Below, piece by piece: positions 44,678 to 48,011 of a stretch of DNA of 64,000 nucleotides. The position numbers were made by a program, and so were the translations under genes. The notes under the pieces were generated by a model. The model was not told where the DNA came from, searched no databases, and saw only the letters and a program-made list of their open reading frames with translations. This DNA is from Mediterranea massiliensis (GTDB lineage Bacteria; Bacteroidota; Bacteroidia; Bacteroidales; Bacteroidaceae): contig SUYA01000002.1 of the NCBI GenBank assembly GCA_015060695.1, positions 186,001-250,000 of the forward strand. The letters are read 5' to 3'. Position 1 is the first letter of the stretch. Every line of letters begins with the position of its first letter.

Positions 44678-44707
44678 TTTGCATATAAAAGAAAAGTGTT
44701 ACATTTG
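44678..44707 (+). promoter_or_regulatory. Promoter of the aromatic amino acid operon
   Basis: TTTG (44678-44681), an 18-bp spacer and TACATTTG (44700-44707) match the Bacteroidetes promoter. Transcription would start near 44711, about 26 nt before the leader-peptide ATG, so the transcript includes the whole attenuator. Confidence 0.7.
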
Positions 44708-44736
44708 CGCAGAATTTAAAAAAACAAAACGATAGT

Positions 44737-44823
44737 ATGAATTTGTCCACTTATGCATATTATTTTTTCTTTTACTTTTACTTTAGCCACAAAGTAAAGC
44801 GGGAAATTGTATGTGTAAATTGA
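44737..44823 (+). CDS. Tyr/Phe-rich leader peptide of the aromatic operon
   Basis: A 28-codon reading frame runs from ATG at 44737 to TGA at 44821-44823. Residues 6-16 are YAYYFFFYFYF: five Tyr and five Phe among eleven residues. It begins about 26 nt after the predicted transcription start. The last aromatic codons (44776-44784) lie in arm 1 of a hairpin whose other arm also pairs with the terminator. A ribosome stalled there for lack of charged tRNA-Phe or tRNA-Tyr would block arm 1 and favour read-through. The peptide itself probably has no function. The frame was read directly from the sequence; the role is inferred from position and from classical pheA/trp attenuators. Confidence 0.9.
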   Translation: MNLSTYAYYFFFYFYFSHKVKREIVCVN

Positions 44824-44875
44824 TAGATGACATTAAGATTTGAAAAATAAAAAACAGAATATAAATCCCGCTTTA
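44776..44875 (+). promoter_or_regulatory. Attenuator arms 1, 2 and 3 (anti-terminator)
   Basis: Arm 1 (44777-44784) pairs with 44791-44798 over 8 bp with a 6-nt loop, extended by one G-U pair (44776 with 44799). Arm 2 (44795-44804, TAAAGCGGGA) is perfectly complementary to arm 3 (44866-44875, TCCCGCTTTA) over 10 bp. Because 1:2 and 2:3 share bases, they exclude each other, and 2:3 excludes the 3:4 terminator. This is the arrangement of amino-acid-responsive attenuators. Confidence 0.85.
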
Positions 44876-44900
44876 TTATGAAAGTGGGATTTTTTCTTTT
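44863..44900 (+). terminator. Attenuator terminator before pheA
   Basis: A 12-bp stem with one G-U pair (44863-44874 with 44881-44892) and a 6-nt loop is followed by a T-rich run through 44900. It ends 12 bp before the pheA start, too close for a terminator of the GH31 transcript and in the right place for an attenuator. Confidence 0.9.
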
Positions 44901-44911
44901 AAAAAAGAGCG

Positions 44912-45763
44912 ATGAAAAAAATAGCCATTCAAGGAACGTTAGGTTCATTTCACGACATTGCAGCCCATCAATATTACGAGGGCGAAGAAATAGAACTAAT
45001 ATGCTGCTCTACTTTCGAAGAAGTTTTTGAAGCAGCACAACACGATAGTCAAATTATAGCCTTAGCCGCTATAGAAAATACTATTGCTGGTAGTTTATTA
45101 CATAACTATGAATTATTAAAGCAGAGTAATTTACAAATTATAGGCGAACACAAACTACGCATTTCGCATTGTATATGTTGCCTCCCTGAAGAAAGTTGGG
45201 AGAACATCACAGAAGTAAATTCGCACCCCATCGCATTAATGCAATGCCGCGATTTTTTGAATCGCCACCCACAAATAAAAGTGGTAGAAACCGAAGACAC
45301 TGCCCTCAGTGCCGAAAATATTAAGAAAAAACAATTAAAAGGCCATGCTGCTATTTGTTCAACTTCTGCCGCTCAGATGTATGGAATGAAAATATTAGAA
45401 GAAGGCATTGAAACTAATAAGCACAATTATACACGCTTTTTAGTGTTAGCTGACCCTTGGCAAGTTGACGAACATATTCGATATAAAAACACCCAACTCA
45501 ACAAAGCCAGTATGGTATTCACATTGCCTCACGTAGAAGGAAGCTTATCACAGGTATTGTCCATTTTATCGTTTTATCGCATCAACCTGAGCAAAATTCA
45601 ATCACTACCTATTATCGGACGTGAATGGGAATATCAGTTTTACGTTGATGTAGTTTATGACAACATTTTAAGATACAAACAATCCATTACAGCAATAACT
45701 CCACTTACCAAAGAACTTAAAATTTTAGGAGAATATGAAGATGGCAAATCAACTTATCAATAA
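44912..45763 (+). CDS. pheA: Prephenate dehydratase
   Basis: This 283-residue enzyme converts prephenate to phenylpyruvate, the committed step to phenylalanine. The PDT domain shows KIAIQGTLGSFHDIAAHQYY, AAIENTIAGSLLHNY and the catalytic Thr-Arg-Phe in HNYTRFLVL near residue 170. A C-terminal ACT domain (MVFTLPHVEGSLSQVLSILS, then KIQSLPI) should bind phenylalanine for feedback inhibition, although the common ESRP motif is changed to QSLP. There is no chorismate mutase domain; that activity is fused to DAHP synthase two genes downstream. It overlaps the aminotransferase gene by about 23 bp and is preceded by the attenuator. Confidence 0.94.
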   Translation: MKKIAIQGTLGSFHDIAAHQYYEGEEIELICCSTFEEVFEAAQHDSQIIALAAIENTIAGSLLHNYELLKQSNLQIIGEHKLRISHCICCLPEESWENITEVNSHPIALMQCRDFLNRHPQIKVVETEDTALSAENIKKKQLKGHAAICSTSAAQMYGMKILEEGIETNKHNYTRFLVLADPWQVDEHIRYKNTQLNKASMVFTLPHVEGSLSQVLSILSFYRINLSKIQSLPIIGREWEYQFYVDVVYDNILRYKQSITAITPLTKELKILGEYEDGKSTYQ

Positions 45764-46922
45764 AATACGTCCCGCTGATCGTTTAGCAGGAGTAAGTGAA
45801 TACTACTTCTCTAAAAAGTTGAAAGAAGTAGCCCAAATGAATGCTGAAGGGAAAAATGTAATCAGTTTAGGAATAGGAAGTCCAGATATGCCTCCCTCTG
45901 AAGCATCAATCAGCAGACTATGTCATGAAGCACAAAACCCTGATGGGCATGGATATATGCCATATATAGGTATCCCAGAACTGCGCCAGGCTTTTGCCAA
46001 TTGGTATAAGAAATGGTACAATGTAGAACTCGATGCCAAAAGTGAAATTCAACCTCTAATTGGATCGAAAGAGGGGATTCTACATGTAACATTGGCTTTC
46101 GTGAATCCCGGCGATCAAGTATTAGTACCCAATCCAGGATATCCCACTTACACATCGCTTAGTCGTATTTTGGGTGCAGAAGTTATTCACTACGATTTAA
46201 AAGAAGAAAACGGATGGATGCCAGACTTCGAGGTATTAGAAAAGATGGATATGAGTAGAGTAAAATTAATGTGGACGAATTATCCCAATATGCCTACAGG
46301 AGCCAATGCTACACCAGAACTTTATAAAAAGCTTGTCGATTTGGCCCAGCGCAAAGGAATAGTCATTGTCAATGATAATCCATATAGTTTTATTTTAAAC
46401 GACAAACCGTTAAGTATTCTCAGTATCAACGGAGCTAAAGAATGTTGCATAGAATTCAATTCTATGAGTAAAAGCCATAACATGCCTGGATGGCGAATTG
46501 GCATGTTAGCTTCTAATGCCGATTTTGTACAATGGATTTTAAAAGTGAAAAGCAACATAGATAGTGGTATGTTTCGTGCCATGCAATTGGCGGCAGCAAC
46601 TGCATTAGAAGCTGAAAAAAATTGGTATGAGAGTAACAATCGTAACTATCTCAATCGCCGTCGTATTGCTGGAGAAATCATGGATACACTGGGGTGTACT
46701 TACGATGAGAAGCAGGTTGGAATGTTCCTTTGGGGACGTATCCCCGACACATGCGACAATGTGGAAGAACTGACCGAGCAAGTATTACATAAAGCTCGTG
46801 TATTCATCACACCGGGATTCATCTTTGGTAGCAATGGAAACCGATATATTCGAATTTCACTTTGTTGTAAAGATGAAAAGTTAGCCGAAGCCCTTAAGCG
46901 TATAAAAGAAATGAATAAATAA
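45741..46922 (+). CDS. Class I/II aminotransferase (aromatic or LL-DAP type)
   Basis: About 393 residues from the ATG at 45741; an ATG 6 bp upstream is also in frame. Fold-type I PLP features are visible: LGIGSPDMPPSEASI, a substrate-loop GHGYMPYIGIPELRQAFA, NYPNMPTGANAT, and the PLP-binding Lys in EFNSMSKSHNMPGWRIGM. Sequence resembles the LL-diaminopimelate/aspartate aminotransferase group. Its position between pheA and DAHP synthase argues that it transaminates phenylpyruvate and hydroxyphenylpyruvate in the last step to Phe and Tyr. The start overlaps pheA, so translation is probably coupled. Confidence 0.9.
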   Translation: MANQLINKIRPADRLAGVSEYYFSKKLKEVAQMNAEGKNVISLGIGSPDMPPSEASISRLCHEAQNPDGHGYMPYIGIPELRQAFANWYKKWYNVELDAKSEIQPLIGSKEGILHVTLAFVNPGDQVLVPNPGYPTYTSLSRILGAEVIHYDLKEENGWMPDFEVLEKMDMSRVKLMWTNYPNMPTGANATPELYKKLVDLAQRKGIVIVNDNPYSFILNDKPLSILSINGAKECCIEFNSMSKSHNMPGWRIGMLASNADFVQWILKVKSNIDSGMFRAMQLAAATALEAEKNWYESNNRNYLNRRRIAGEIMDTLGCTYDEKQVGMFLWGRIPDTCDNVEELTEQVLHKARVFITPGFIFGSNGNRYIRISLCCKDEKLAEALKRIKEMNK

Positions 46923-46943: not shown

Positions 46944-48011
46944 ATGGAACTCGAATTAGAACCCATCAAACTGGAAGGCGTAGAAGATAAACGCCCGTTG
47001 GTAATAGCCGGACCGTGTAGTGCCGAAACAGAAGAACAAGTAATGGATACAGCTCGCCAATTAGCTAGTAAGGGAATTAAAATTTTCCGCGCTGGAATTT
47101 GGAAGCCCCGTACTAAACCTGGAGGCTTCGAAGGCATTGGTGTTGACGGTTTGGCGTGGATGAAAAAAGTGAAACAAGAAACCGGAATGTACACCGCCAC
47201 CGAAGTAGCTACAGCCAAGCATGTATTCGAAGCATTAAAAGCCGGGATTGATATTTTGTGGATTGGTGCCCGCACTACCGCAAATCCTTTTGCCGTACAA
47301 GAAATTGCTGATGCTGTTAAAGGTGTAGACATCCCGGTCTTGGTGAAAAATCCGGTAAATCCTGATTTGGAATTATGGATTGGTGCCATGGAACGCATCA
47401 ACCAAGCCGGTATCAAAAAGATTGGTGCCATCCATCGTGGTTTTAGTAATTATGACAAAACCATTTATCGTAATCTTCCTCAATGGCATATTCCCATTGA
47501 ATTGCGTCGCCGTATTCCTAATCTGTCTATAATTTGTGACCCTAGTCATATAGGAGGAAGACGCGAATTGATAGCTTCATTGTCTCAACAAGCCATGGAT
47601 CTAGGTTTCAATGGACTTATAATTGAGAGCCATTGCAATCCAGATTCGGCATGGAGTGACGCAAAACAACAAGTAACACCCGATATTTTAGACTACATAC
47701 TTAATCTACTTGTGATACGTAAAGATACTCATACTACCGAAAACTTAAGCGAGTTACGAAAACAAATCGATGAATGTGACAATAAATTAATACAAGAACT
47801 TTCAAAGCGTATGCGAGTAGCACGAGAAATAGGTACTTTCAAAAAAGAGCACAACATGACCATTCTGCAAACCGGACGTTACAATGAAATTTTGGACAAA
47901 CGTGCTGCACAAGGGGTTCTTTGTGGTATGGATAGTGACTTCATCAAGAAAGTTTTCGAGGCTATCCATGAAGAGAGTGTACGTCAACAGATGGAAATCA
48001 TCAACAAATAA
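46944..48011 (+). CDS. Bifunctional DAHP synthase / chorismate mutase
   Basis: This 355-residue fusion joins the first shikimate-pathway enzyme to chorismate mutase. Residues 1-260 are a type I-beta DAHP synthase barrel (RPLVIAGPCSAETEEQVM, GIKIFRAGIWKPRTKPGGFEG, IGARTTANPFAVQEIA, IICDPSHIGGRRE). Residues about 265-355 are an AroQ-type helical chorismate mutase (NLSELRKQIDECDNKLIQEL, RMRVAREIGTFKKEHN, then a C-terminal helix). In related fusions the mutase domain mediates feedback by prephenate on DAHP synthase. In this operon the mutase supplies prephenate to both pheA and tyrA. Type I-beta/AroQ fusions are typical for Bacteroidales. Confidence 0.95.
   Translation: MELELEPIKLEGVEDKRPLVIAGPCSAETEEQVMDTARQLASKGIKIFRAGIWKPRTKPGGFEGIGVDGLAWMKKVKQETGMYTATEVATAKHVFEALKAGIDILWIGARTTANPFAVQEIADAVKGVDIPVLVKNPVNPDLELWIGAMERINQAGIKKIGAIHRGFSNYDKTIYRNLPQWHIPIELRRRIPNLSIICDPSHIGGRRELIASLSQQAMDLGFNGLIIESHCNPDSAWSDAKQQVTPDILDYILNLLVIRKDTHTTENLSELRKQIDECDNKLIQELSKRMRVAREIGTFKKEHNMTILQTGRYNEILDKRAAQGVLCGMDSDFIKKVFEAIHEESVRQQMEIINK

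What the first reader, a model, noticed from the sequence alone, without database searches (positions are those of the whole stretch)
44678..44900. Complete Tyr/Phe leader-peptide attenuator in front of pheA-aminotransferase-DAHP synthase/CM-tyrA
Seen directly: a Bacteroidetes promoter, a 28-codon frame with YAYYFFFYFYF, a 1:2 hairpin whose first arm overlaps the last aromatic codons, a perfect 10-bp 2:3 pairing, and a 3:4 intrinsic terminator 12 bp before pheA. The 1:2/2:3/3:4 exclusion is the logic of enterobacterial pheA and trp attenuators, but here one leader senses both Phe and Tyr and controls an operon that makes both. The single leader would couple the two branches. I do not know whether this element has been described in Bacteroidales; the mechanism usually needs tight coupling of transcription and translation, which makes it informative in this phylum.
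Basis: partly seen in the sequence, partly recalled or inferred. Interest (0 to 1): 0.92.

Follow-up and report, generated by a model that had tools for sequence, protein, structure and literature searches.

The report
Aromatic leader-peptide attenuator of Bacteroidota
In front of this bacterium's genes for making phenylalanine and tyrosine, the DNA encodes a tiny peptide packed with those two amino acids plus an RNA predicted to fold in two mutually exclusive ways, so a ribosome stalling for lack of either amino acid would likely switch the genes on; the same arrangement recurs in most of the relatives examined, sometimes twice in a row.

Summary
A 28-codon frame (44737-44823; 5 Tyr, 5 Phe codons) precedes an intrinsic terminator whose left arm also pairs over 10 bp with the leader's 3' part, ahead of pheA-aminotransferase-DAHP synthase/chorismate mutase-tyrA. 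It is not chance: 141 of 154 usable pheA upstream regions have an aromatic leader plus terminator (2 of 770 shuffles); helices 2:3 and 3:4 covary; a covariance model hits 117 of 151 family genomes. The best mechanistic evidence is a ruler: the last aromatic codon lies a median 14 nt before the antiterminator (72 of 81 diverse elements within 10-18 nt; 26% in shuffles), about a ribosome's reach, while the stop codon's position drifts. Best reading: ribosome-mediated transcription attenuation sensing Phe and Tyr. The 1:2 protector hairpin is the weak part. Elements recur outside the order (27 of 29 fetched loci); 15 of 154 loci carry two units in tandem; 24 of 81 diverse leaders hold Trp. The kind is known (pheL, trpL, hisL), and a 2021 Flavobacterium paper already noted conserved 5' elements of pheA and hisG; so this is a new member with informative variants. 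Nothing was tested at the bench.

The parts
44678..44707 (+). Predicted promoter: TTTG (44678-44681) and TACATTTG (44700-44707)
   Evidence: TAnnTTTG in 125 of 140 loci within 90 nt upstream of the first leader against 108 of 1400 shuffles; box names recalled
44737..44823 (+). Leader peptide frame, 28 codons plus stop, MNLSTYAYYFFFYFYFSHKVKREIVCVN
   Evidence: aromatic leader in 143 of 154 usable upstream regions
44752..44784 (+). Aromatic codon run (codons 6-16: Y A Y Y F F F Y F Y F), predicted stall zone; also holds inner arm 1 (44770-44778)
   Evidence: composition by frame; ribosome-masking model; distance to arm 2
44795..44804 (+). Arm 2, left strand of the antiterminator; extended pairing at 44807-44812
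   Evidence: covariation; duplex z -5.3
44866..44875 (+). Arm 3, shared by antiterminator (2:3) and terminator (3:4)
44863..44900 (+). Intrinsic terminator: stem 44863-44892 (12 pairs) and T-rich tail
   Evidence: -14.8 kcal/mol; covariation
44912..45763 (+). pheA, prephenate dehydratase
   Evidence: PF00800, E 3.8e-56; NCBIfam best model below its cut-off
45735..46922 (+). Class I/II aminotransferase (specificity not shown; context suggests aromatic)
   Evidence: PF00155; best NCBIfam models below their cut-offs
46944..48011 (+). DAHP synthase fused to chorismate mutase; the only PF00793 hit in the genome held
   Evidence: PF00793 and PF01817
48021..48794 (+). tyrA, prephenate dehydrogenase family
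   Evidence: PF02153; NCBIfam hits below cut-offs

Best explanation
This is most likely a leader-peptide transcription attenuator, in which a ribosome slowed at the leader's Tyr or Phe codons would keep RNA polymerase going into the pheA-aminotransferase-DAHP synthase/chorismate mutase-tyrA operon. Inferred steps: transcription starts near 44714. With enough charged tRNA-Phe and tRNA-Tyr the ribosome runs past codon 16 onto arm 2 (44795-44804), so arm 3 pairs with arm 4 and transcription ends near 44897. When either tRNA is short, a ribosome held with one of the last aromatic codons in its A site reaches just short of arm 2, about 14 nt on. Arm 2 then pairs with arm 3, the terminator cannot form, and the operon is read. 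Shown by sequence: the frame, the codons, the two alternative pairings and their covariation, the near-fixed spacing, and the operon. Not shown: translation of the leader, termination, and the response to Phe or Tyr.
For: Leader plus terminator in 141 of 154 usable pheA upstream regions against 2 of 770 shuffles. Antiterminator duplex z below -2 in 143 of 156 leader-terminator pairs and in 68 of the 81 diverse ones. Cells changed on both sides: 2:3 34 against 7-22 in slid controls, 3:4 65 against 6-19; for these two counts none of 500 shuffles reached the observed value (48 elements chosen by me out of 156). Ruler: last aromatic codon to arm 2, median 14 nt, SD 2.4 in the 68 diverse elements with z of -2 or lower, against SD 13.7 for arm 2 to stop codon; within 10-18 nt in 72 of 81 against 25.7% for shuffles, and in 24 of 28 elements of the separate phylum sample against 25.9%. 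Masking model: in the window P(2:3) is 0.8-0.9 for every A-site position up to F16, 0.73 at S17 and 0 from H18 to V27. Aromatic fraction 0.42 in frame against 0.16 and 0.15 in the other frames. Same genome: a His leader (MRIVVAHIHHHHHPNEYTVG) and an Ile/Val leader, each with terminator and antiterminator, offsets 17 and 13 nt.
Against: No expression, term-seq or ribosome data were available. In the equilibrium model the no-ribosome state of the window favours 2:3 (0.79) instead of the terminator, and in the window and two Bacteroides loci a ribosome at the stop codon leaves 2:3 near 0.5. Over all 156 elements only 55 have an aromatic stall exceeding both the no-ribosome and the stop state by 0.2; 136 exceed the stop state. 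2:3 covariation is weaker by two other measures: pairs with a change on both sides were reached by 15 of 500 shuffles and further pair types by 99 of 500; the outer two of the window's 10 pairs are unpaired in 20 and 42 of 48 elements. 11 of 154 loci show no ATG leader; L098 and L124 have a leader but no terminator by my detector. 13 of 156 pairs have antiterminator z not below -2. 34 of 151 family genomes have no model hit.
Confidence: 0.9

Rival explanations
1. Translational instead of transcriptional control: the 3:4 hairpin, which ends 19 nt before the pheA start, would hide the pheA ribosome-binding region, and leader stalling would expose it.
For: In the window the stem ends at 44892 and the pheA ATG is at 44912.
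Against: The hairpins are followed by a T-tract (required by my scan, so this is not independent evidence), and in several relatives they end far from the aligned pheA start: L014 134 nt, L028 130, L125 167, L129 125, L149 122. In the tandem loci listed the first hairpin ends about 146-282 nt away.
Confidence: 0.05
2. The frame is a real small-protein gene (acting in trans or a membrane peptide) and the terminator simply ends its transcript.
For: The peptide is strongly conserved within Bacteroides.
Against: Outside Bacteroides and its close kin the aromatic run is what is kept, with Phe and Tyr (and at times Trp) interchanging and the ends differing. The conserved C-terminus coincides with RNA pairing. 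Antiterminator pairing and ruler are unexplained by this.
Confidence: 0.03
3. The terminator belongs to the upstream glycoside hydrolase gene and the aromatic frame is a by-product of T-rich DNA.
For: The region is T-rich and the upstream gene (PF01055) reads in the same direction.
Against: A homologue of that upstream gene was found in only 2 of the 80 named loci (flanks up to 5 kb, some shorter), while the leader persists. A promoter box precedes the leader in 125 of 140. Shuffles with the same dinucleotides give leader plus terminator in 2 of 770.
Confidence: 0.02

Closest known systems
Enterobacterial pheA attenuator (pheL; Rfam RF01859 Phe_leader)
   Same: Phe-codon leader, alternative hairpins, intrinsic terminator in front of pheA (pheL details recalled)
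   Different: No model match: 16.6 bits against a gathering score of 55. Here Tyr codons are as many as Phe codons, and the operon also holds an aminotransferase, DAHP synthase/chorismate mutase and tyrA.
trpL and hisL leader attenuators of Proteobacteria
   Same: 2:3 against 3:4 exclusion set by ribosome position on codons of the end product (recalled)
   Different: Arm 2 starts before the end of the leader frame in 142 of 156 pairs, and in the model the protector 1:2 keeps 2:3 from forming without a ribosome in the two Bacteroides loci printed but not in the window. The window's weak Trp_leader match is 16.3 bits against 41.
5' elements upstream of pheA and hisG in Flavobacteriaceae (PMC9723704, section 19 read)
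   Same: Same phylum, same gene, no Rfam match, clues for leader-peptide attenuation at amino-acid operons
   Different: That section gives no anatomy, codons, covariation, spacing, tandem arrangement or spread beyond the family; the rest of the paper was seen only as passages and its supplement not at all.
Tandem attenuators of Salmonella mgtCBR (PMC3641672, abstract read)
   Same: Two leader frames with attenuation in series before one operon
   Different: There the two sense different signals (ATP and proline); here both units of a tandem carry aromatic codons.
ilvGMEDA and thrABC leaders of E. coli (recalled)
   Same: One leader with codons of several amino acids
   Different: Different amino acids: branched-chain, and Thr/Ile.

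Membership tests
Ribosome-mediated (leader-peptide) transcription attenuator | Short upstream frame with a run of codons for the operon's own product | tested here: met
   Leader in 143 of 154 regions; 133 of 154 have at least 8 aromatics in 11 residues, 0 of 770 shuffles
Ribosome-mediated (leader-peptide) transcription attenuator | Intrinsic terminator between leader and first gene | tested here: met
   By sequence:
Ribosome-mediated (leader-peptide) transcription attenuator | Antiterminator exclusive with the terminator and placed so that a stalled ribosome spares it | tested here: met
   By sequence and model only:
Ribosome-mediated (leader-peptide) transcription attenuator | Protector hairpin 1:2 | tested here: inconclusive
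   Predicted; covariation mixed; no-ribosome P(2:3) 0.79 in the window, 0.05 and 0.07 in two Bacteroides loci
Ribosome-mediated (leader-peptide) transcription attenuator | Premature termination relieved by starvation for the amino acid | not testable with these tools
   Needs RNA or reporter data
Rfam RF01859 Phe_leader | Score at or above the family's gathering threshold | tested here: not met
   16.6 bits against 55
T-box riboswitch or other Rfam leader | Match to an Rfam model at gathering score | tested here: not met
   0 matches in the window and in 10 related loci

The most novel reading that the evidence does not exclude
Aromatic amino-acid synthesis across the Bacteroidota is run by one ancient, Rfam-unlisted attenuator whose logic is a ribosome ruler: the last Phe/Tyr/Trp codon is held about 14 nt from the antiterminator while everything else drifts. 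Some lineages doubled it into two aromatic checkpoints in series, or added Trp codons so that one leader reads all three aromatic amino acids. Its persistence would mean that RNA polymerase and the leading ribosome stay coupled in a phylum that largely lacks Shine-Dalgarno initiation.
Probability: 0.55. Interest if true: 0.75.

Novelty: new member of a known kind. Interest (0 to 1): 0.55.

Why it matters
It gives one cis element that predicts how Bacteroidota set Phe and Tyr synthesis from charged-tRNA levels, with the only DAHP synthase gene found in this genome behind it (genome 86.6% complete). It makes a general question testable: whether transcription and translation are coupled in a phylum that mostly lacks Shine-Dalgarno sites (recalled). 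The codon-to-antiterminator ruler is a quantitative, annotation-free signature for finding such attenuators elsewhere; the His and Ile/Val leaders of the same genome fit it at 17 and 13 nt. Tandem and Trp-bearing variants are natural experiments in combining signals.

Tried and rejected
Rejected: a known Rfam leader; terminator of the upstream gene; T-rich chance frame. First attempts that failed: the script had a wrong tblastn option, so it examined only the 50 loci L111-L160 and the window, with positions shifted by about 10-17 nt; positions are taken instead. One search used a truncated arm 3 and gave weak antiterminator scores (70 of 156 below z -3); corrected. Searching for a Trp leader in the same genome led nowhere because no trpE was found (genome 86.6% complete). 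A Thr-rich frame precedes the homoserine dehydrogenase gene, but no terminator was detected. Rows dropped: 6 of 160 upstream regions shorter than 180 nt (L027, L036, L054, L055, L139, L155) and one chance frame in L011. The phylum search had pheA hits in 128 of 148 genomes, window's included, of which only the 29 fetched loci were examined, the best-scoring ones. Gene context of the model hits was not checked. Sampled genomes and named contigs overlap in species (the L003, L106 and L107 leaders are identical), so counts are not independent.

Full report
WHAT IS THERE. The window is part of a 2.53 Mb, 28-contig genome whose closest named pheA matches are Bacteroides and Mediterranea. The stretch 44678-44911 holds promoter-like boxes, a 28-codon frame with 5 Tyr and 5 Phe codons, and an intrinsic terminator directly before pheA. 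Arm 2 (44795-44804) and arm 3 (44866-44875) form 10 perfect pairs; arm 3 also forms the terminator stem with arm 4. The genes behind are pheA (PF00800), an aminotransferase (PF00155), DAHP synthase fused to chorismate mutase (PF00793, PF01817) and tyrA (PF02153). Of 80 named loci, 70 reach at least 3.2 kb downstream of pheA and all 70 keep the order. Only one PF00793 gene was found in the genome held, which is 86.6% complete.

IS IT MORE THAN CHANCE. I collected pheA upstream regions from 80 named contigs, 79 genomes of a 198-genome draw from the order and the window: 160, of which 154 are long enough. 143 have a frame with at least 6 aromatics in 11 residues and 141 also have a terminator behind it; of 770 dinucleotide shuffles (five per region, last 450 nt) 20 and 2 do. 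133 of 154 reach 8 of 11; no shuffle does. By group: 66 of 77 usable genome loci (window included) and 75 of 77 named ones have leader plus terminator. Two leader-bearing loci lack a detected terminator (L098, L124). Of the 11 without an ATG leader, L114 and L137 have GTG-started aromatic frames and L156 a short one, each before a terminator; L097 has lost the ATG while keeping codons and terminator; for L017, L020, L022, L154, L158, L159 and L160 the scan found none. A covariance model built from 48 elements hits 117 of 151 family genomes at E up to 0.001, once in the window's genome; the window and two of the family genomes were in its training set.

HELICES. On the 48-element alignment (my choice from 156) 2:3 with its extension has 9 of 16 pairs and 34 cells changed on both sides; slid controls give 7-22 cells. 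By shuffles the cell count is never reached (0 of 500), but pairs with double change (15 of 500) and further pair types (99 of 500) are. The outermost two of the window's 10 pairs are not general. 3:4 has 9 of 12 pairs and 65 cells against 6-19 slid. 1:2 is mixed: 74.7% of cells paired against at most 53.4% slid, 68 double-changed cells against at most 60, but 18 double-changed pairs against 14-22 slid. Over all 156 leader-terminator pairs the antiterminator duplex has a median z of -4.7; 143 are below -2; of the 81 diverse ones (genome draw plus window) 68 are. In distant species the arms differ in letters and still match.

THE RULER. If a stalled ribosome sets the choice, the last control codon must sit a ribosome's reach before arm 2. 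It does: median 14 nt (SD 2.4) in the 68 diverse elements with z of -2 or lower, while the distance from arm 2 to the stop codon has SD 13.7 and even changes sign. Over all 81 diverse elements the SD is 5.7. In a search restricted to sequence after the last aromatic codon, 72 of 81 fall within 10-18 nt against 25.7% of 3240 shuffled placements; in a separate phylum sample 24 of 28 (median 12) against 25.9%. That a ribosome covers about 13 nt beyond the A site's first base is recalled. The masking model (footprint -15 to +13 around the A site) agrees: in the window P(2:3) is 0.8-0.9 for every A-site position up to Phe16, 0.73 at Ser17, 0 from His18 to Val27, then 0.34 and 0.48 at the last codon and stop. 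The model's weak point: with no ribosome it leaves 2:3 formed in the window (0.79; median 0.71 over 156) but not in two named Bacteroides loci (0.05, 0.07). So termination without translation is predicted only for some lineages, or depends on folding order, which the model ignores.

CODING. In-frame aromatic fraction is 0.416 against 0.163 and 0.151 in the other frames, which hold 1.7 and 1.1 stops per leader. Outside Bacteroides and close kin, Phe and Tyr swap and the ends differ, as expected for codon sensing. The frames were picked for aromatic density, so these fractions are biased upward.

SPREAD AND VARIANTS. Of 29 loci fetched from a phylum sample (the best-scoring of 128 genomes with hits), 27 have leader plus terminator, including three labelled same phylum but not same class (L184, L197, L207). 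15 of 154 loci have two leader-terminator units in series; L138 is doubtful, since its units have z -1.5 and 0.3. L181 of the phylum set is also double. 24 of 81 diverse leaders contain Trp, 19 of them next to Phe or Tyr. In the window's own genome there are a His leader (G000:C2:169766, terminator at 169867) and an Ile/Val leader (G000:C4:44941-45036, minus), each with an antiterminator, 17 and 13 nt after the last control codon. No trpE was found, in keeping with the lack of Trp codons here, but the genome is incomplete.

WHAT IS KNOWN. PMC9723704 (section 19 read whole; [quoted passage not shown] PMC7366714 (passages) mentions B. thetaiotaomicron upstream frames reminiscent of leader peptides, naming BT_4401. 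[quoted passage not shown] PMC3766115 (passages) suggests that the amino-acid attenuator motifs it could search arose in gamma-proteobacteria. Lopatovskaya et al. 2010 was seen only as a reference and is not held; I recall that it predicted attenuation in Bacteroidetes/Chlorobi, which would lower novelty further. PMC3641672 (abstract) is the precedent for tandem attenuators. Searches for Bacteroides with leader peptide and aromatic or prephenate terms found nothing, nor did leader peptide with tyrosine codons; the library holds open-licence papers only.

VERDICT. A conserved ribosome-mediated attenuator, by all sequence evidence, canonical in its 2:3/3:4 logic, with codons for two and at times three aromatic amino acids and recurrent tandem copies, and present well beyond the order. 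New member of a known kind; the ruler and the tandem forms are what I would show a specialist.

Noticed in passing
L005, L007, L010, L011, L012, L026, L126, L127, L135, L138, L142, L145, L147, L151, L153 (and L181): Two aromatic leaders, each with its own terminator, in series before pheA (L138 doubtful).
   Followed up: partly
G000:C2:169766-169895 (L214): His-rich leader MRIVVAHIHHHHHPNEYTVG with terminator and antiterminator ahead of hisG in the window's genome; no Rfam match.
   Followed up: partly
G000:C4:44880-45036, minus strand (L215): Leader MLYAAVNLSSNAIIHVVVVGHRGEKGCCMSL with terminator ahead of ilvD; the GTG start listed for ilvD lies inside the terminator, so the real start is probably the ATG just downstream.
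   Followed up: partly
G000:C3, upstream of the homoserine dehydrogenase gene (L213): A short frame ending MGTTTTLRG, a possible Thr leader; no terminator detected.
   Followed up: no
window 44821-44845 and A1 columns about 100-125: In Bacteroides-type elements the stretch GTGACAGTGATGCTTAAGAACTGA from the leader stop on is strongly conserved but unpaired in 2:3 and 3:4; it is degenerate in the window and not recognisable in distant elements. Its start may pair with the leader's 5' part; the CTTAAGAAC part is unexplained (pause site?).
   Followed up: no
L097 (named contig CASDXF010000002.1): The leader ATG seems deleted between two TTACTTT-like repeats (promoter box and leader) while codons and terminator remain; real loss or assembly error.
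   Followed up: no
window 45735-45763: The listed aminotransferase start overlaps the end of pheA by 29 nt, suggesting translational coupling (a second ATG lies at 45741).
   Followed up: no
L113, L115, L117, L118, L121, L126-L128, L131, L142-L145, L147-L149, L152 and some phylum loci (L183, L189, L192, L196, L202, L205, L209): Trp codons next to Phe or Tyr codons in the leader, as if one leader read all three aromatic amino acids.
   Followed up: partly
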